DNA from: Alphaproteobacteria bacterium
GTDB lineage: Bacteria > Pseudomonadota > Alphaproteobacteria > Rickettsiales > SXRF01
NCBI GenBank assembly: GCA_013288305.1
Contig: JABDCD010000010.1
Coordinates: forward strand, 1 to 33,829
DNA: 33,829 bases
Direction: 5' to 3'
Numbering within the stretch: position 1 is the stretch's first letter; each line of letters opens with the position of its first letter. The notes beneath the pieces are model-generated. The model did no database searches. It had not been told where the DNA came from and saw nothing but the letters and a program-made list of their open reading frames with translations. Made by a program: the position numbers and the translations under genes. Positions 3-28,134 of this stretch are shown in pieces.

Positions 3-1886
3 GGCCGCAAATTCGCCTACGCTGTATGGACACCGCTGACGGCAGCCAGCGCATTTATCAGTTACGGCATTACGCCGAATTGCGGAGCGATCATAGTCAA
101 CAATGCCGGCGGCGGTCGCCGTACGACTTTGGGCGCTTATACCCTTATCAGTTACGGGGCGGACGGGCATGGCGGCTATCTCAAGGGCGGTGCGCGCATG
201 AATGCCGGGGTGACCAACACCGACGAGTTGACGAATTGCCATTGCACCAGCGCCGCCGCCGCCGGAACCTATGCCGCCAGCTACGTGCAGAAAGACATTT
301 CGCTCGACGGCAGCGACGCGACGCACCCGTTCAACGATATCGTGCGCTTCAAGGAACGCTGGCAAATGCAGAATGCCTATGATGGGTTTAGCCCTGCGGG
401 TCAGGCCTGCATCCCGGGCTTCCGCGTTGATGGGGTGACCGCTACTTGGAGAACCGGTACAGGCATTACGTCCTGCGATGTGAACGGTGACGGCATTCCC
501 GATCTTATCATCCAGTCAGGTTTTGGCAATCGAGTGTATGTTATATTCGGCAACGCCACCGGTAATTTCATCAATCCTCTGCCGGTCGATCAACTCGACG
601 GCACCAACGGCTTTGCCATTTATGGCTTCACTGCCAGCGGCGATTACTTGCTTAATCTGGCGGTTGCCTGCGGCGATATCAACAATGACGGTACTGACGA
701 TATTATTATCGGAAACCCGACCGCGCATGAAGGAGGCGATTCAATAGCTGGCGCGGTGTATGTCATTTTCGGCCACAAGGCCGGCGACCCGGCCTGGCCT
801 GCTGTGCTTGACATACTCAACACACCTCTTACCGGCACTAACGGCTTTGAGATCTACGGCGTCAACCTTCGTGGCGTGGGCAGCTCGGTAGCTGTCGGCA
901 ATATCAACGGGGACGCGTACAAGGACATCCTAATTGGCGGCGACGGCGGCTATTATAACACCTACACGGATATTGGCTGGGTCATTTTTGGCCATTCCGG
1001 CTCTTGGCCTGCCAGAATAAATCTTGCAACCGACCCACTGGATGGGAGCGTTAACGGCACTAAAGGCACGTACATGCAGATCAGCGATCCTAATCTATAT
1101 GGTGCAACTAGTAGGATAGGAGCGAATATGGCCACCGGCGATATCAACGGCGATACTTATGACGACATCTTGATCGGGGGCAGCAATGTAGGCGACGGCT
1201 TCGTCGTGTTCGGCCATGCCGATCCCTGGCCCACCTCTCTCACCGTCGATACCTATGTTGACGGCACCAAAGGTTTCAAGGTTAGTATCCCGGGGCTATC
1301 TAATTACGACACCAAGTTAGTGGCCGGTGACATCAAGGGCCATGGAAACGGAACCAAAGATCTGATTGTCGCAAACCCTCTCGTCGGAGTATGGGTCTAT
1401 TTCGGTCATGCGACGCCTTGGAACGACGTCTCTCCCCTTACTTCGCCTCCCACCGGTAATGCGGGAGCGCGTCCCGGCTTCGCCTTGACCAACGCGGGTA
1501 AGGTCGCTCTGGGTATGAACGTCGCTGTCGGCGACGTCAACCATGACGGAACCCCCGATCTGCTGGTCAGCGATCCGTGGATAAACGGTGCGAAGGGAGC
1601 GGTATACGTGATCTTCGGTAGCGATTCTTACGCATGGTCGTCGACGTTTGACCTAGCTACCCTCAATGGGACGAATGGGTTTGCCATTACCGGTGTCGCT
1701 GCGAATGACGCTGCCGGCTTTGGCCTTGCCGTCGCCGACATTTATAAAGACGGCTATTCTGACGTGCTGATCGGCGCTTCGAACGCCTCTCCAAACAGCG
1801 TGACCAACGCCGGTTCCACCTATGTCCTCTTCGGCAAAAAGCAGAACGGCTGGCCCGCCAGCTATGATCTGAACAACCTTAACTAA
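3..1886 (+). CDS. Prepilin-like protein with C-terminal FG-GAP/integrin-alpha-type beta-propeller (5' truncated by window edge)
   Basis: Frame 3 is open from base 3 without a stop: GRKFAYAVWTPLTAASAFISYG...GAYTLISYGADGHGGY...DELTNCHC...FNDIVRFKERW. This matches the C-terminal region of the prepilin at 27319-28134. It is followed by seven FG-GAP-like repeats (DVNGDGIPDLII, DINNDGTDDIII, NINGDAYKDILI, DINGDTYDDILI, DIKGHGNGTKDLIV, DVNHDGTPDLLV, DIYKDGYSDVLI), most ending in a (V/I)xFG strand. The listed ATG at 129 is internal. Confidence 0.85.
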   Translation, partial: GRKFAYAVWTPLTAASAFISYGITPNCGAIIVNNAGGGRRTTLGAYTLISYGADGHGGYLKGGARMNAGVTNTDELTNCHCTSAAAAGTYAASYVQKDISLDGSDATHPFNDIVRFKERWQMQNAYDGFSPAGQACIPGFRVDGVTATWRTGTGITSCDVNGDGIPDLIIQSGFGNRVYVIFGNATGNFINPLPVDQLDGTNGFAIYGFTASGDYLLNLAVACGDINNDGTDDIIIGNPTAHEGGDSIAGAVYVIFGHKAGDPAWPAVLDILNTPLTGTNGFEIYGVNLRGVGSSVAVGNINGDAYKDILIGGDGGYYNTYTDIGWVIFGHSGSWPARINLATDPLDGSVNGTKGTYMQISDPNLYGATSRIGANMATGDINGDTYDDILIGGSNVGDGFVVFGHADPWPTSLTVDTYVDGTKGFKVSIPGLSNYDTKLVAGDIKGHGNGTKDLIVANPLVGVWVYFGHATPWNDVSPLTSPPTGNAGARPGFALTNAGKVALGMNVAVGDVNHDGTPDLLVSDPWINGAKGAVYVIFGSDSYAWSSTFDLATLNGTNGFAITGVAANDAAGFGLAVADIYKDGYSDVLIGASNASPNSVTNAGSTYVLFGKKQNGWPASYDLNNLN

Positions 1887-1957
1887 CCGTTACGATCCGT
1901 TTTATGAAAAGCCCTAACGAATACAAAAAGCAAAGCTCATTATCTAAGGAGCGTTTT

Positions 1958-4900
1958 ATGACCGCAACGCATCATACCGCCAAGCCACAATGGCGCCACG
2001 TCGCCCTGGCCGCCCTCTTGCTATTGCTGGGTAGCGTACTCATTCCCTCCGCCGGCTTTGCCTCCGGTAGCGCATCGTTCGTAGCTGCAGATTCGACGAC
2101 GTCGGGCAACTGGAAGGGAACCTACGGATATGACGGGGGCGATGTCGTTGGGGATCAGGGGCTCAGCCTGCCGGCTTACGCAACAGTCAAAGTGACGACT
2201 GCCGGTGGTGGCGGTTCCATGACAATGCTCCCTTCGACTTCGGACGTACGGGCGCTGCAGAAATCGTCCAGTTCCACGGATCGCGAAGTGTCGTTCTGGT
2301 ATTCGAACGGTGTTATGCCCATAGACATTGACATCAACGTGACCGACGGCAAAACGCACGCTATTTCTTTTTACGCCATCGATTGGAACAGCTATCCTCT
2401 CACCCAGACCGTTAAGGTCACGGATGGCGACAGCGGCGCGGTGCTCGATTCCCAGACTATGTCTTCCTTCTCCGGCGGCCTCTACCTCGTGTGGAATGTC
2501 AGCGGGCACGTTAAATTCGCAGTCACGCCCAACGGTGCCTATGCTGCTTACATGTATGGCGTCTTTTTTGGCATCCCGGATCCTTCGGCACCACCGCAGG
2601 TTATTTCCGTCACGCCGGCACAGCCCGTGTATATATCCCCTTCGAGCGCATTCACCGCTACCTTCAACAAGGCGATGGACGCGAGCACGCTCAACGCCAA
2701 CACCGTACAACTTCTCGACCCGTCTAACAAGCCCGTGCCCGCCACGGTGAGCTATAATGCCTCAACGAAGACGGTGACCTTGCAGCCGACGAATCCGCTG
2801 ACAGTGTCCACGGCTTACACTTTCACCGTGCTCGGTGGATCTTCCGGCGCGGTCGCCAAGGATGCAAACGGCCATGCCCTGGCCAGCACTTTCACCGTCA
2901 CGATGTCAACCCCCATGGGCGATTTCATCAAGGTGCCTTACGTAGCACCCGACGGCAACGGAGATGGGGGTACGCACGTCGAGTACATGAACATCCCGAA
3001 CTTCGGGTTGCATTCGACGGTAGGCAACACCAAATCCGGCAACTGGTCTGATCCAAGCATCTGGTCTACCGGCAAACTGCCCGGTACCGGAGACATCGTC
3101 AATATCGTATCCGGCACGACTGTGACCTACGATGTAAACAGCGCGGCTGTCCTGAACACTGTTGAAATCCTGGGGGGCGGCACACTTACCTTTAGCCCTA
3201 ATGTCACTACCAGTATGACTTTGCTCAACCTCTTGGTGCTGGACAAAGCAACGCTGAATATCGGCACGGTGAACAATCCAATCGCGTCCAACGTGACGGC
3301 CTCGGTTATTTTTGCCAATCAGCCGCTCAATGTTGACTTCGACCCGGAAGAATACCAGCACGCGCTCATTGGGCTGGGCACCGTAACCACGGCCGGAACG
3401 CCGAGGGTACTAACCTTCGTGCGCCTGAAGACCGAACCACAAGCCGGCGATACGACCTTGACGCTGGCCTCCGCTGTCAGCAACTGGAATGCCGGCGACA
3501 AGCTGATACTCTCCGACTCGCGCCAGTACCGCACTGCCCCAGATGAGAGCGAGCGCCCGACCATCGCCAGCGTGTCTTCCGACGGAACGGTCGTGACACT
3601 TACCGCGCCGCTCCAGTATGCCCATCCCGGGGTCAGGGACGCCAACGGGGTGCTTGACTACACACCCCACGTGGGCGATCTGACCAACAATGTCACCATC
3701 CGCTCGCAAAGCGCTACCGGTGTGCGCGGTTACGTCATGTTCACCCAGCGCGCCAACGTCGATCTCCGCTACACCACCTTTGCCGGGCTCGGCAGGACGA
3801 AGATAGACGCCTTAGACAATACGACCTTCGACACCAACAACAACCTGACCCACATTGGATCCAACCAGAATGAGCGCTCCGCCGTGGAGTTCCTCCACCT
3901 CATGGGACCGTCCACGACCCCGTCCAATGGCTACCAGTTCACTATGATCGGTGATGCGGTGTTCTGTCCGCTCGATCCCATGCCGTTCCGCTGGGGTATC
4001 GTCCTCGACGACACCAATTACGGTTTGCTGCAGGACAACGTCGTCTTCAACTGGGAGGGCGCCGGACTCATGACGGTGAGCGGCTCCGAGAGCTTTAATA
4101 TGGTTAAGCACAACTTCATCGTCAAAACCACCGGAGTGGCGGATCGCCCCGACGACCGGAACATAGGTAACTTTACCGATATCGGCATTGAGGGGTCGGC
4201 CTTCTGGTTGCGTACGCCCAATAATTACGTCGAGGGCAACGTGGCCGCCGGCACCGCCCGTTACGGCTACCAGTATTACGCCCGCTATGTTCCGAACATC
4301 ACGATCCCGCTCTTCCCGGGCGCTGATCTCGTGGCAGGGCAGTTCCACATGGCCCAGGTGAATTCCCTGCCGATCCTCGAGTTCAGCGGAAACGAGTCCT
4401 ATGGCGGGCGCTCGCTGAGCTACTGGTGGATCAACGCTATCGACCAGACCCCGGAAGGTGCTGGAACCAGCACCTTCAAGGATTTCACGGCATGGCACAT
4501 CCATCCAATCGGCGTATGGAGCTACGAGAGCAACGACGTCGTCCTCGATCACTTCGTCATGCGCAACGATGCCGGCGATCCTGCGCTTGTATCGTATGGA
4601 GACACGGCGATCGGACAGGCCGATTATTTCACCCAAAAGAATGTAATCACCAATGCCGACATTCAGGGGTTCTTGATCGGGTTCGCGCCCAGCACCAATA
4701 CCCGTGGGGGGACGATCACGATCCGTGATTCGTACCTGAGAAACTATATCAACATCGGGATAGGGTCCAGGTGGTTTGCGACGAGCGATCTCACAACCGT
4801 AGGCTCACGCACCGTGGTCGTCGACAATGTGCGTTTCGACAAGCTGAACCGTCCGGACGACGCGACATGGGGACCCCAGTCCAACATCCTCCGCTCGTCG

Positions 4901-5146
4901 TCTGCGTTTAACGCCGGTAGGACCAACTGGATCGCGCTCGACCAGACGTTTGTCTATAACTACAACGGCGTCAGCGGCGACAATTTCCAGGTCTTTTATC
5001 CGGATCAAGCGGCCAGCGCGCCGGCGCCGCAGACGGTTTACAGTGATGGCAGCTTAATCATGTTGGGCTGCCCCGTGGACGGCCTGCTCAATGGCGACTG
5101 CTGGAAATTGTACGGCGTCGCCCGGGCCGGTGAACTGGCACCGTGA
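1958..5146 (+). CDS. Secreted G8-domain / Ig-like (SbsA/Big_5-like) / parallel beta-helix protein, CEMIP-like architecture
   Basis: ATG at 1958 preceded by TAAGGAG; signal peptide MTATHHTAKPQWRHVALAALLLLLGSVLIPSAGFA; Ig-like segment 'PPQVISVTPAQPVYISPSSAFTATFNKAMDASTL..'; G8-like segment 'KSGNWSDPSIWSTGKLPGTGDIVNIVSGTTVTYDVNSAAVLNTVEILGGGTLTF'; then repetitive beta-helix-like sequence. Confidence 0.75.
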   Translation: MTATHHTAKPQWRHVALAALLLLLGSVLIPSAGFASGSASFVAADSTTSGNWKGTYGYDGGDVVGDQGLSLPAYATVKVTTAGGGGSMTMLPSTSDVRALQKSSSSTDREVSFWYSNGVMPIDIDINVTDGKTHAISFYAIDWNSYPLTQTVKVTDGDSGAVLDSQTMSSFSGGLYLVWNVSGHVKFAVTPNGAYAAYMYGVFFGIPDPSAPPQVISVTPAQPVYISPSSAFTATFNKAMDASTLNANTVQLLDPSNKPVPATVSYNASTKTVTLQPTNPLTVSTAYTFTVLGGSSGAVAKDANGHALASTFTVTMSTPMGDFIKVPYVAPDGNGDGGTHVEYMNIPNFGLHSTVGNTKSGNWSDPSIWSTGKLPGTGDIVNIVSGTTVTYDVNSAAVLNTVEILGGGTLTFSPNVTTSMTLLNLLVLDKATLNIGTVNNPIASNVTASVIFANQPLNVDFDPEEYQHALIGLGTVTTAGTPRVLTFVRLKTEPQAGDTTLTLASAVSNWNAGDKLILSDSRQYRTAPDESERPTIASVSSDGTVVTLTAPLQYAHPGVRDANGVLDYTPHVGDLTNNVTIRSQSATGVRGYVMFTQRANVDLRYTTFAGLGRTKIDALDNTTFDTNNNLTHIGSNQNERSAVEFLHLMGPSTTPSNGYQFTMIGDAVFCPLDPMPFRWGIVLDDTNYGLLQDNVVFNWEGAGLMTVSGSESFNMVKHNFIVKTTGVADRPDDRNIGNFTDIGIEGSAFWLRTPNNYVEGNVAAGTARYGYQYYARYVPNITIPLFPGADLVAGQFHMAQVNSLPILEFSGNESYGGRSLSYWWINAIDQTPEGAGTSTFKDFTAWHIHPIGVWSYESNDVVLDHFVMRNDAGDPALVSYGDTAIGQADYFTQKNVITNADIQGFLIGFAPSTNTRGGTITIRDSYLRNYINIGIGSRWFATSDLTTVGSRTVVVDNVRFDKLNRPDDATWGPQSNILRSSSAFNAGRTNWIALDQTFVYNYNGVSGDNFQVFYPDQAASAPAPQTVYSDGSLIMLGCPVDGLLNGDCWKLYGVARAGELAP

Positions 5147-5295: not shown

Positions 5296-6344
5296 CTAAC
5301 GGGATATAGCAGCTAACCCCATAGGAGAAAAACGGCCGGTGGCCGGATCCATTTCCTCAATGCGTTGAGTTGCCGGGTCGATTACCCAGCCGCGCACTTG
5401 GATAGAGTTTGTTTCCGGATAGCTCCTCTTCAAAGCCGCGACACTATGCCGAATTTTGTCCTTTTGGGCGGCGCGCGCTTCAGGCGAGTCATGCCCTCCT
5501 GTTTTGCCCAACACCACGATATCTTCGACCTTCCCGTCCAAAGCGAATTCGATCATTGCCGCTTCCTTGTCACTGGCGGGGCCTTTTACTACCCCATCCT
5601 GTGTACGGTAGATAAGTGCTTTGCCATCGCCCAGCGGTCCATCGGCAGTATGCAAATCGTCCTGCGGCAATAAAGTGGCATCCATGTTGCAAATAATCAG
5701 CATCTTCGGTTCATGCGGCGGCGGTTTGCATTCATGTTCGGAAAAATCACGCAGCGCCGTCTCCGGATCCATCAATTCCCCGGTAGCGGTATCGAGCAGG
5801 TATGGCTCAATCCTGAGCTTTTTTGCATCAAACGCTTCCTGTACGACCTTGTGCAATTTCAGCTTGTTCACGCTATCGAGCACGGATCGCGCTTCTAAAC
5901 ACCGTAGGTTCTTCGCATCGTTATCACTGAATTTCAATGCATCCTCATGCACATCGGCAAGAGACCCGAGATATTTTTTAAGACGAGGGCCGCCTTTCCC
6001 ACACATGCAGGCCCCGATGCCGCCGCAATGGTTATGCGGAATTATCCGGATACATTTCACCCCGCTCTTGATCGCTTCGGTGAGCAATTTTTCCTCTTCA
6101 TCCCCGTCCGGCCCACCGGGGCCGAGCACGCGCGCGGCAATATTGCGGACGATATATCCATTGCCAACCGCAAACGGTTTGCCGCCTTTCTTAAACCTTT
6201 TTGGATTTATCCGCGCATCGACGCAAGCTATCGCCAACACTCTATCGCCGGCAGGAGATACGCGATCAGCAGTACTTGCGGGGATAGCTTTAGCAGGCTG
6301 TAAATTTTGCTGCCAACCCCGTATTTCATCGACCAGTTTACCCA

Positions 6345-6345
<1 letters not shown>
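5296..6345 (-). CDS. Beta-carbonic-anhydrase-like protein with apparent degenerate second CA-like domain
   Basis: 349 aa; CVDAR and HNHCGG motifs (beta-CA CxDxR...HxxC zinc site). Second half repeats the layout (ICNMDATLLP...GDGKALIYR...VEDIVVLGKTGGH...VRGWVIDPATQRIEEMD). Start overlaps the thiC stop (ATGA). Confidence 0.65.
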
Positions 6346-8243
<1,898 letters not shown>

Positions 8244-9289: not shown

Positions 9290-10350
9290 CACACACCGAC
9301 ATCCTCATCGCCGGCGGCGGGTTCGCCGGGCTGGCCTGTGCCAAGGCGCTGGCGGAGGCGGGCGTCGGCGTCACCTTGCTGGAGCGCAAGAAAGCGCCCG
9401 GCGTCGGGATGCACACCACCGGCATCATCGTCAAGGAATGCGCTGAAGAATTCGCCATCCCGCCTGCGCTTACACGCAAAGTGACCGACGTGCGGCTTTA
9501 TGCTCCATCGCTTCGCTTCGCCGATCTCAAATCGCCCGATTATTTTTTCCTGACCACCGATACGCCAGGGCTGATGCGGCATTTATCGGAAGAGGCCACA
9601 CGATCCGGAGCCTATATTATTTACGATACGGCCTATGAACATGGCCGGGAAGAGGGAAAATGCATCAGCATCAATAACGGCGCATTTTCCTGCCGGTTTT
9701 TGATCGGCGCCGACGGGCCGCGCTCGAAGGTGGCTGATGATTTCGCGCTGGGGCAGAATAGGCAATTCCTGCTTGGCGCCGAGGCGGAATATGAGGGCTT
9801 GCAGCTGATAGATAACCATAAATTCTATTGTTTTCTCGATCAAACATTGGCCTATGGCTATCTGGGCTGGGTGATTCCCGGCGTCGGCGTGACGCAGATC
9901 GGCCTCGCCCAGCGGATGCCGAAAAAGCCGGATATCGACGCATTTGTCCGGCGCATGAGCGGCATATTCGATTTTTCGCAGGCCAAAGTGGCGGCGCGGC
10001 GCGGCGGGCTGATTCCCGTCGGCGGGCTGGTCAGGCCTTTCGCGCGGGATAACGTCATCCTGCTGGGTGATTCAGCGGGCATCGTTTCGCCGCTGACAGC
10101 AGGCGGCATTCACACCGCCCTGCATTACGGCAAAATACTGGGCGACACCCTTGCCCGTCACATCAAGGACGGCGCGGAGCATCCGGCTTCCCTGCTTGAG
10201 CGTATCTACCCACGGTTTTACGCCAAGCAGGCACTCAGAAAATCCTATGAAACGCTGGCGCCCAACTGGCTGCTCGACGCCGTGGTGACCAACCCCCTGT
10301 TCACAACCCTGGCAAGCGCCGTTTTTTTCAGGAAAAAACGGTTGAAGTAA
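9286..10350 (+). CDS. FAD-dependent oxidoreductase, geranylgeranyl-reductase-like
   Basis: N-terminal Rossmann GGGFAGLACAKALAEAGVGVTLLERK; ILLGDSAGIVSPLTAGGIHTAL. ATGA overlap with mutY. Confidence 0.8.
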   Translation: MTHTDILIAGGGFAGLACAKALAEAGVGVTLLERKKAPGVGMHTTGIIVKECAEEFAIPPALTRKVTDVRLYAPSLRFADLKSPDYFFLTTDTPGLMRHLSEEATRSGAYIIYDTAYEHGREEGKCISINNGAFSCRFLIGADGPRSKVADDFALGQNRQFLLGAEAEYEGLQLIDNHKFYCFLDQTLAYGYLGWVIPGVGVTQIGLAQRMPKKPDIDAFVRRMSGIFDFSQAKVAARRGGLIPVGGLVRPFARDNVILLGDSAGIVSPLTAGGIHTALHYGKILGDTLARHIKDGAEHPASLLERIYPRFYAKQALRKSYETLAPNWLLDAVVTNPLFTTLASAVFFRKKRLK

Positions 10351-11744: not shown

Positions 11745-12710
11745 TCACTCGCCAATTGTTCCCTGGCTTTGATGGAACTGCAACTTCGCTACATACTCCA
11801 TCGGGTCTTTGGGCGTGACCAGCGCGCCGGGGGAGCGGTTAAGCCAGTCATGCGCGCGCGTAACCAGAAAGCGTAGCGCCGCGCCGCGCACCAACACGGG
11901 AAATGCCGCCTCTTCTTCCGGCGTGAACGGACGCAGGTCGGTATAGCTGTGCATCAGGGCCTCAGCGCGCTCCGGGACGAAGCGATGCTTGTCGTCGAAA
12001 CACCAGGCATTCACACAAATCGCCAAGTCATAGGCCCAGGCGTCATGACAGGCGAAATAAAAATCGATGACGCCGGAAAGCACCGGCGGCTTTCCGAAGG
12101 GTTTATGGAAAAACACATTATCGGGAAATAAATCGGCATGAATGGGACCGGAGGGTAAGCCTTGCGGCCAATGCTCGCTCAGAAAATTAAATTCCTCGTT
12201 GATCAACGTTCGCAAGCCCGGCTCTATTTCATCCACGCGGTCAATAATCTTATCGATAATCGCCTCCCAGCCCTTGACCGATAAAGCATTGTCGCGGGAA
12301 TGGGGGAAATCCATGCCGGTGAGGTGCATGTCCGCCGCCAGCTTGCCCAGTTGCAGCATATGCTCAAGGGCGATTTTTTCGACGCCCGCGCCTTCGAGAA
12401 AACTCACCATCAGTGCCGGTTTTTCCTTAAGCGCCGCCAGCGTCCGCCCATCGCGCATTTTTATCGGCTGCGGGCAATGGATCCCGCGCACGTGCCACCA
12501 TTCCATCAGGGTGGTGAAATAGGGAAGGTCTTCGATCTTGACGCGTTTTTCGAAGAGGGTGAGGATGTATTTGTGGCGGGTAGTGGTGATAAGATAATTC
12601 GTATTCTCAATCCCCTCGGCAATGCCTTGGAAAGACACCAATTCGCCAACGTCGTATTGAGCGAGGAAGGATTCGATGTCCTGCTGGCTAAGGGGGGTGT
12701 AAACGGCCAT
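11745..12710 (-). CDS. thrB: Homoserine kinase, ThrB type II (APH-fold)
   Basis: [43 protein letters not shown]..., [40 protein letters not shown]. Confidence 0.93.
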
Positions 12711-27318: not shown

Positions 27319-28134
27319 GTGAAATCCCCGCGTGCCACCGCATCCAACGCCGCTTTTACCCTGCTTGAGCTTTCGCTGGTATTGGGCGTTCTTTCCTTGC
27401 TGATCGCCGGCATTTTATCCGTAGTGACGCAAAACACGCGGCGCGCCGCCATGATGGAAGTAAGCCGGAAGATGGACGTCATCGAGGCGGCATTGCTCAA
27501 TTTCAGGCGACTAAACGGCCGTCTGCCCTGCCCGGCTGATGGGTCTTATGCCATCACCAGCCAGTATTTCGGCATCGAAGGCGCTACTACCGGCACCTGC
27601 ACCGGCGGCACACCTGCGGCGAATTTCACCGACGGTAGCAATACGATCGGCGGCGTGGTTCCAATCAAGACTCTGGGGCTGTCGAACGATTATGCGTTCG
27701 ATCCGTGGAACGGGCGTTTTTTCTATGCCGTCGACAAACGCATCACGGGAGCCTCGGCATTTACCACCTACACCGTGACGAGCACCAGCATAGGCAGTAT
27801 GTCGATCTACGACGGCAGCAGTACTCCGACGGCTATATCGGGTACGGCGCGTACCACTGTAGCGATCGCGATGGTGATGAGCTTTGGACCAAACGGTCAT
27901 GGGGCCTATCAGTTCAGCGGAGTACGTAAATCGTCGGGATCAAACAACATCGATGAATTGCAGAATTGCCATTGTGATAACACAGCTACCGCCACTGCCT
28001 TCGACTACAAATTCGTCCAGCACCCTCCGACAACGACCAGTTCCAGCGATCCCACCTATAATTTCGACGATATCGTCCGTTATTATCTGCGGTCATCCTT
28101 CCTAAACACCACGGATACGACGATATCGCGGTAA
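27319..28134 (+). CDS. Prepilin-type N-terminal cleavage/methylation domain protein
   Basis: GTG start; type IV/II prepilin motif AAFTLLELSLVLGVLSLLIAGILSVVTQ; C-terminal DELQNCHC and YNFDDIVRYY motifs shared with the CDS at 3-1886. Confidence 0.85.
   Translation: MKSPRATASNAAFTLLELSLVLGVLSLLIAGILSVVTQNTRRAAMMEVSRKMDVIEAALLNFRRLNGRLPCPADGSYAITSQYFGIEGATTGTCTGGTPAANFTDGSNTIGGVVPIKTLGLSNDYAFDPWNGRFFYAVDKRITGASAFTTYTVTSTSIGSMSIYDGSSTPTAISGTARTTVAIAMVMSFGPNGHGAYQFSGVRKSSGSNNIDELQNCHCDNTATATAFDYKFVQHPPTTTSSSDPTYNFDDIVRYYLRSSFLNTTDTTISR

What the first reader, a model, noticed from the sequence alone, without database searches (positions are those of the whole stretch)
3..1886. Prepilin-like module fused to a complete seven-repeat FG-GAP propeller
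Seen: the open frame at the window start aligns with the C-terminal half of the prepilin at 27319 (GR-F-YAV..T.ASAF..Y; (S)(Y/F)G.(D/N)GHG.Y; DEL.NCHC; (F/Y)(N)(F)(N/D)DIVR) and continues into exactly seven FG-GAP-like repeats, the number of blades in an integrin-alpha propeller. Inference: a minor pilin carrying an adhesive, calcium-binding propeller at the pilus tip.
Basis: partly seen in the sequence, partly recalled or inferred. Interest (0 to 1): 0.8.

Follow-up and report, generated by a model that had tools for sequence, protein, structure and literature searches.

The report
Pilin carrying an integrin-like propeller
A bacterial pilus subunit has a propeller-shaped binding domain fused to its end; two complete sister genes in the same genome carry a short DNA repeat in the right place to switch the gene on and off, so this looks like a family of switchable, exchangeable pilus adhesins.

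Summary
Window 3-1886 is one uninterrupted frame: the C-terminal half of a pilin domain followed by seven FG-GAP units. The window starts at a contig end, so its prepilin N-terminus is missing, but two full-length paralogues on other contigs of the same genome (C7, C21) have it (GFTLLELSIVL) fused to the same pilin domain and to FG-GAP repeats. It is best filed as a modular type IV pilin with an integrin-alpha-like propeller.

(2) A second FG-GAP class lacks Glu5, as tip-capping pilins do. (3) Both full paralogues have (GCAA)7 between the only upstream ATG and the prepilin motif, out of frame as assembled, a contingency-locus layout. Among 37 genomes (GCAA)5 or longer occurs at three places, all 5' of pilin genes. 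(4) Two of the three copies are followed by a G8-domain protein. (5) Both complete copies lie in insertion-like settings. (6) Between paralogues heads are 69-79% identical and propellers only 31-36%.

Surface display, tip position, ligand and actual switching are inferred.

The parts
3..383 (+). C-terminal half of the pilin head domain (GRKFAYAV ... SYGADGHGGY ... DELTNCHC ... FNDIVRFKERWQMQ); N-terminal half lies beyond the contig start
   Evidence: 73-79% identical to heads of C21 and C7
411..1883 (+). Seven-unit FG-GAP, integrin-alpha-like beta-propeller
   Evidence: Pfam PF01839 2e-29; AF2 pLDDT about 80, best PDB matches integrin alpha; PDB profile match
474..512 (+). FG-GAP unit 1 loop CDVNGDGIPDLII (canonical Ca2+ motif)
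672..710 (+). FG-GAP unit 2 loop GDINNDGTDDIII (canonical)
897..935 (+). FG-GAP unit 3 loop GNINGDAYKDILI (first D replaced by N)
1137..1175 (+). FG-GAP unit 4 loop GDINGDTYDDILI (canonical)
1326..1370 (+). FG-GAP unit 5 loop GDIKGHGNGTKDLIV (degenerate)
   Evidence: by eye
1530..1568 (+). FG-GAP unit 6 loop GDVNHDGTPDLLV (canonical)
1734..1772 (+). FG-GAP unit 7 loop ADIYKDGYSDVLI (partial)
1904..5146 (+). Linked downstream gene: likely secreted protein (hydrophobic N-terminal stretch by eye) with Big_5, G8 and CEMIP-type beta-helix domains, starting 17 nt after the pilin stop
   Evidence: the C7 paralogue has the same neighbour
27319..28134 (+). Pilin-only member of the same head family (FTLLELSLVL, no propeller)

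Best explanation
The window gene encodes a modular type IV pilin: a prepilin-peptidase-processed pilin head that joins a type IV filament and carries a seven-bladed, FG-GAP, integrin-alpha-like propeller out to the cell exterior, where it most likely acts as a ligand-binding adhesin. It belongs to an alphaproteobacterial family of pilin heads with exchangeable C-terminal modules, mostly beta-propellers. In this genome it is one of three diverged copies. The two complete copies have a GCAA tract between start codon and prepilin motif, so slipped-strand changes of tract length should switch the gene on and off. Shown: domain order, fold prediction, paralogues with prepilin N-termini, module exchange across the family, tract and reading frames, linkage to G8 genes. 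Inferred: processing, surface display, tip position, ligand binding, phase switching, and that the window copy has the same leader as its paralogues.
For: Full-length paralogues C21 (864-aa frame) and C7 (975-aa frame) have GFTLLELSIVL plus the same head plus FG-GAP. Orthologues with an in-frame start codon occur in four related genomes. Head homologues with NHL, WD40-like, RCC1 and LamG modules show a carrier head with swappable effectors. A retraction-capable pilus machine is present: an MshE-type ATPase with c-di-GMP domain next to a PilC/GspF, and two PilT/PilU-family ATPases above cut-off. Nine genomes tested with the head family have a PilB-class ATPase (E below 1e-118); five without it do not (no match better than 1e-38). 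(GCAA)7 sits exactly 5' of both complete fusions and nowhere else in the genome. The upstream ATG is out of frame at n=7 in both, in frame at n=5, 8, 11 (C7) or n=3, 6, 9 (C21), and no other ATG, GTG or TTG lies in frame before FTLLEL. (GCAA)5 or longer occurs at only three places in 37 genomes, all 5' of pilin genes. Paralogue heads are 69-79% identical, propellers 31-36%, with broadly similar fourfold-site divergence. Modular pilins with bulky C-terminal adhesin modules are experimentally established in Streptococcus sanguinis (PMC8179133, PMC9934059).
Against: The N-terminus, leader and start of the window copy are not in the assembly. The genome is a 55%-complete MAG; tract lengths are consensus values without read support. 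No ribosome-binding site is obvious before the proposed start. The G015 tract lies in an in-frame leader that also has nearer ATG codons, so switching is not required there. The genome also encodes a type II secretion system (GspD and GspE), and no T4P genes adjoin the fusion, so assignment to the pilus machine is indirect. The AF2 model is poor over the pilin head (few sequences). Nothing shows a ligand.
Confidence: 0.72

Rival explanations
1. It is a type II secretion pseudopilin rather than a pilus subunit: the propeller sits in the periplasm at the pseudopilus tip and gates or binds substrates.
For: The genome has a GspD secretin and a GspE above its cut-off. The head matches GspG models weakly, and the tip pseudopilin GspK is known to carry an extra domain.
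Against: In the relatives G001, G005, G010 and G013, which have the fusion, the ATPase search lists no second GspE-class match next to the MshE-type one. Strong divergence of the propeller and exchange of whole modules suit outward ligands better than a conserved secretion gate.
Confidence: 0.15
2. The GCAA tract and propeller divergence mean the copies are decaying pseudogenes: the frames are simply broken 5' of the prepilin motif and the propellers drift under relaxed selection.
For: Neither complete copy has an in-frame ATG, GTG or TTG before FTLLEL as assembled. Several blades are degenerate.
Against: Frames of 864 and 975 codons are otherwise intact. The leader parts on both sides of the tract (MQKMH..KIASKQ and ACLGF) are conserved between copies, with mainly silent changes in the ACLGF part. 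The break is precisely a hypermutable tract with the same unit in both copies, also found before a pilin in another genus.
Confidence: 0.12
3. The FG-GAP propeller is an enzyme (such as a glycan-degrading propeller) displayed on the pilus together with the G8/CEMIP partner, as a surface polysaccharide-processing unit.
For: Two of the three copies are followed by a G8/CEMIP beta-helix gene; by general knowledge the eukaryotic relatives of that domain act on hyaluronan.
Against: The closest matches are non-enzymatic integrin alpha propellers. Other heads in the family carry different propellers or a lectin, pointing to binding. C21 has no G8 neighbour.
Confidence: 0.1

Closest known systems
Modular type IV pilins (PilB with vWA and PilC with lectin module of Streptococcus sanguinis; PMC8179133, PMC9934059)
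   Same: Pilin head with class III signal peptide fused to a bulky non-pilus binding domain; family with many exchangeable modules; proposed tip display
   Different: Module is an FG-GAP propeller; FG-GAP is not named in the main text of PMC8179133; the head family is alphaproteobacterial, with mostly propeller modules and, in some copies, a repeat tract in the leader
PilY1/PilC pilus-tip adhesin of T4aP, phase-variable in pathogenic Neisseria (PMC5953494, PMC5231331)
   Same: Beta-propeller carrier or adhesin at the pilus tip; frame switching by a simple repeat inside the reading frame
   Different: PilY1 is not a pilin. Its Pfam model PF05567 finds nothing in 37 relatives but rings in 23 of 80 genomes of the phylum. 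Here the propeller is fused to the pilin itself and is of another propeller family
Integrin alpha-subunit FG-GAP beta-propeller
   Same: Seven FG-GAP units, DxNxDxxxD loops, best sequence-profile and fold match in the PDB
   Different: About 15% identity, prokaryotic, no integrin leg or transmembrane parts; integrin-type partner unknown
GspK / K-type minor pilins (no Glu5, tip cap)
   Same: A second FG-GAP pilin class in relatives lacks Glu5 (GFSLLQTSIIL, GFSLIMVSIL), as tip-capping K subunits do (PMC9934059)
   Different: Extra domain is a C-terminal propeller, not an alpha-domain inserted in the pilin sheet; the window copy is of the Glu5-bearing class, judged by its paralogues

Membership tests
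Modular type IV pilin | Class III signal peptide / prepilin motif at the N-terminus | tested here: inconclusive
   Beyond the contig end for the window copy. Met in paralogues C7 and C21 (TIGR02532 above cut-off; PF07963 above cut-off in C21)
Modular type IV pilin | C-terminal domain not specific to pilus biology, in the same frame | tested here: met
   FG-GAP, one open frame
Modular type IV pilin | Pilus assembly machine in the genome | tested here: met
   MshE-type ATPase, PilC/GspF, two PilT/PilU ATPases
Modular type IV pilin | Presence in the filament and processing by prepilin peptidase | not testable with these tools
   Needs protein work
Integrin-type FG-GAP propeller | Seven FG-GAP units folding as a seven-bladed propeller | tested here: met
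   Seven units; AF2 model and Foldseek to integrin alpha
Integrin-type FG-GAP propeller | Ca2+-binding DxNxDxxxD loops | tested here: met
   Four of seven canonical; binding itself not tested
PilY1/PilC tip adhesin | PF05567 C-terminal propeller domain | tested here: not met
   No PF05567 in the Pfam scan of the window protein, none in own genome or relatives; positive elsewhere in the phylum
Phase-variable contingency gene (repeat-mediated) | Simple repeat of five or more tetranucleotides in the reading frame near the 5' end | tested here: inconclusive
   Met in C7 and C21; the window copy's 5' end is not assembled
Phase-variable contingency gene (repeat-mediated) | Tract length varies between cells and changes expression | not testable with these tools
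   No reads available; only consensus n=7
K-type tip-capping minor pilin | Absence of Glu5 | tested here: inconclusive
   Window copy unreadable; its closest paralogues have Glu5 (FTLLEL). A separate Glu5-less FG-GAP class exists in relatives

The most novel reading that the evidence does not exclude
In this alphaproteobacterial lineage (probably basal Rickettsiales), pilus-tip adhesion is handled by a set of propeller-pilins that replace PilY1: a conserved head displays interchangeable propellers (FG-GAP, NHL, WD40-like, RCC1), some copies are switched by a GCAA contingency tract in the leader, and new copies arrive as small insertions, some with their own G8 partner. This would be a convergent equivalent of the phase-variable PilC/PilY1 system, built from pilins.
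Probability: 0.35. Interest if true: 0.8.

Novelty: new variant of a known kind. Interest (0 to 1): 0.62.

Why it matters
It would show that bacteria can put an integrin-alpha-like propeller directly on a pilin and exchange it for other propellers while keeping the head, offering a natural series for asking how pilus tips choose ligands. The leader repeat makes expression switching directly testable, and the absence of detectable PilY1 suggests a different answer to the question of what sits at the tip of a type IV pilus. The lineage seems close to the root of Rickettsiales, where type IV pili are discussed as host-attachment devices (PMC9352585, PMC10847448).

Tried and rejected
A dinucleotide (CG)7 tract in the leader of the G001 orthologue looked like a parallel to GCAA, but the 13-base form occurs at about eleven sites in that 2-Mb genome, so I give it no weight. 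PF11104 (PilM) gave only weak, uninformative matches. The first alignment used for the genome-collection scan was too divergent; a narrower one worked. A missing 5' half of the window gene on another contig of the bin was sought and not found. Ntox43 on the 27319 pilin (E 0.001, below cut-off) lies over the pilin head and I regard it as chance. A transfer of whole propellers onto existing heads was considered for the paralogues and disfavoured because fourfold-site divergence is broadly similar in head and propeller. Searches for papers holding FG-GAP together with pilin or prepilin returned none in the held library, which covers open-licence papers only. The supplementary list of 264 modular pilin architectures in PMC8179133 could not be read, so an FG-GAP pilin may be listed there.

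Full report
What was checked. The window is bases 1-33829 of contig C10 of a 1.04-Mb, 55%-complete genome. Frame 3..1886 (+) is open from the contig edge to a stop, 627 codons, without a break. Its first ~127 residues match the C-terminal half of the prepilin at 27319 (38%, E 4e-18); the rest is FG-GAP (Pfam 2e-29). I count seven units, six above Pfam's threshold and one degenerate; four keep the full DxNxDxxxD loop. The AF2 model is confident from residue 137 onward and poor over the pilin part, where only five sequences informed it. The best solved structures are integrin alpha-V and alpha-5 (Foldseek E 9e-12, TM-score by target length up to 0.65), and a profile of the family finds integrin alpha-V at 1e-18.

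The missing half. The same genome holds two complete relatives. C21 has an 864-aa frame and C7 a 975-aa frame. Both contain GFTLLELSIVLAIIAVITAGTMSMG followed by the same head and FG-GAP repeats, with TIGR02532 above its cut-off in both, and N_methyl above cut-off in C21. Orthologues with an in-frame start codon occur in four related genomes (alignment). No contig of the bin carries the lost 5' half.

A family of propeller pilins. A search of 37 genomes found matches to the C21 fusion protein in 32, mostly to its pilin head. In the long members that I classified with Pfam the added module is FG-GAP (many, including one of 2445 aa with twenty FG-GAP stretches), NHL, WD40-like, RCC1, or a LamG lectin with DUF2341; a few have no recognised module. 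I chose long frames for this, so the count is not a random sample. In several genomes of the same family a second FG-GAP pilin has Q or M in place of Glu5. Lack of Glu5 is the mark of the capping subunit in tip complexes (PMC9934059). Modular pilins as a class are known (PMC8179133); the main text there does not mention FG-GAP, and no paper in the held library combines FG-GAP with pilin or prepilin.

Which machine. The genome encodes an MshE-type ATPase with a c-di-GMP-binding domain beside a PilC/GspF, and two PilT/PilU ATPases above cut-off, but also a GspD/GspE pair. Nine genomes with the head family that I tested have a PilB-class ATPase match below 1e-118; five without the family have none better than 1e-38. 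In the relatives carrying the fusion no second GspE-class match was listed. I therefore favour the retractile pilus, without proof. PilY1 (PF05567) was not found in any of 37 relatives, while the same search rang in 23 of 80 genomes across the phylum.

The repeat in the leader. Both complete fusions have (GCAA)7 shortly before the prepilin motif. It occurs nowhere else in the genome. Upstream lies ATGCAAAAAATGCAT; at n=7 it is out of frame in both copies, in opposite senses. In-frame lengths are 5, 8, 11 for C7 and 3, 6, 9 for C21. No ATG, GTG or TTG lies in frame before FTLLEL in either. The peptide on both sides of the tract is conserved between the copies when read in frame. In 37 genomes (GCAA)5 or longer occurs at three places: these two, and 5' of a pilin in another genus (G015), where the tract is in frame but nearer ATGs exist. 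This is the layout of a contingency locus; one Neisseria survey took tetranucleotide tracts of five or more units as its threshold (PMC5953494). The closest parallel is pilC of pathogenic Neisseria, whose tip protein is switched by a poly-G tract (PMC5953494, PMC5231331). Actual length variation cannot be seen in a consensus assembly.

Neighbours and mobility. The window copy is followed after 17 nt, and C7 after about 130 nt, by a gene with G8 and CEMIP-type beta-helix domains. These are the only two G8 genes in the genome, and the other same-family genomes searched have none. C21, with its leader, lies between two 97-bp direct repeats (95% identical) of the 3' end of the upstream ubiA-like gene. 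The C7 pair lies between a tRNA-Pro gene and a 54-bp, 76%-identical tRNA-like 3' fragment. Both settings look like insertions.

Divergence. Among the three copies heads are 69-79% identical but propellers 31-36%. Between species both parts diverge to similar degrees (G005 against G010: 60 and 63%). Fourfold-site differences are broadly similar in head and propeller. The propellers have changed faster at the protein level, as expected for diversifying binding surfaces or, less likely, relaxed constraint.

Taxonomy. A same-family contig of identical length belongs to a record titled Rickettsiales bacterium CoA8N_M8; others are titled Alphaproteobacteria. Placement in Rickettsiales is tentative. 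Basal Rickettsiales are reported to have type IV and Tad pili (PMC9352585, PMC10847448).

Verdict. A new variant of the modular pilin kind, with strong support for domain order and family behaviour, good but indirect support for frame switching in the paralogues, and no direct evidence on display or ligand.

Noticed in passing
L010:6865-6961 and 9746-9842 (G000:C21): 97-bp direct repeats, 95% identical, copying the 3' end of a ubiA-like gene, bracket the C21 propeller-pilin gene and its leader
   Followed up: partly
L009:6791-6867 and 12525-12578 (G000:C7): The C7 pilin plus G8 pair lies between a tRNA-Pro gene and a tRNA-like 3' fragment, an island-like setting
   Followed up: partly
L099:2-1384 (-) (G005:C56): A 461-aa frame with two prepilin-like motifs in tandem (AAFTLLEL..., GAFTLIEV...) before one pilin head, ending in a long proline-rich repeat tail
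   Followed up: no
L063:4957-12291 (+) (G035:C30): 2445-aa prepilin with about twenty FG-GAP stretches, next to a second pilin-like frame
   Followed up: no
G016:C2:39067-42300: FG-GAP repeats inside a 4965-codon open frame in a 1.3-Mb genome of the same order
   Followed up: no
L062:3181-5340 and 5413-7497 (-) (G027:C20): Two tandem pilins, each with an RCC1 propeller
   Followed up: partly
L114 (G015:C29), just 3' of the GCAA tract: A palindromic, repeat-like insert lies inside the leader-coding stretch of a pilin, reminiscent of in-frame palindromic elements known in rickettsiae
   Followed up: no
window 27319-28134: Weak Ntox43 match (E 0.001, below cut-off) over the pilin head, probably chance
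   Followed up: no
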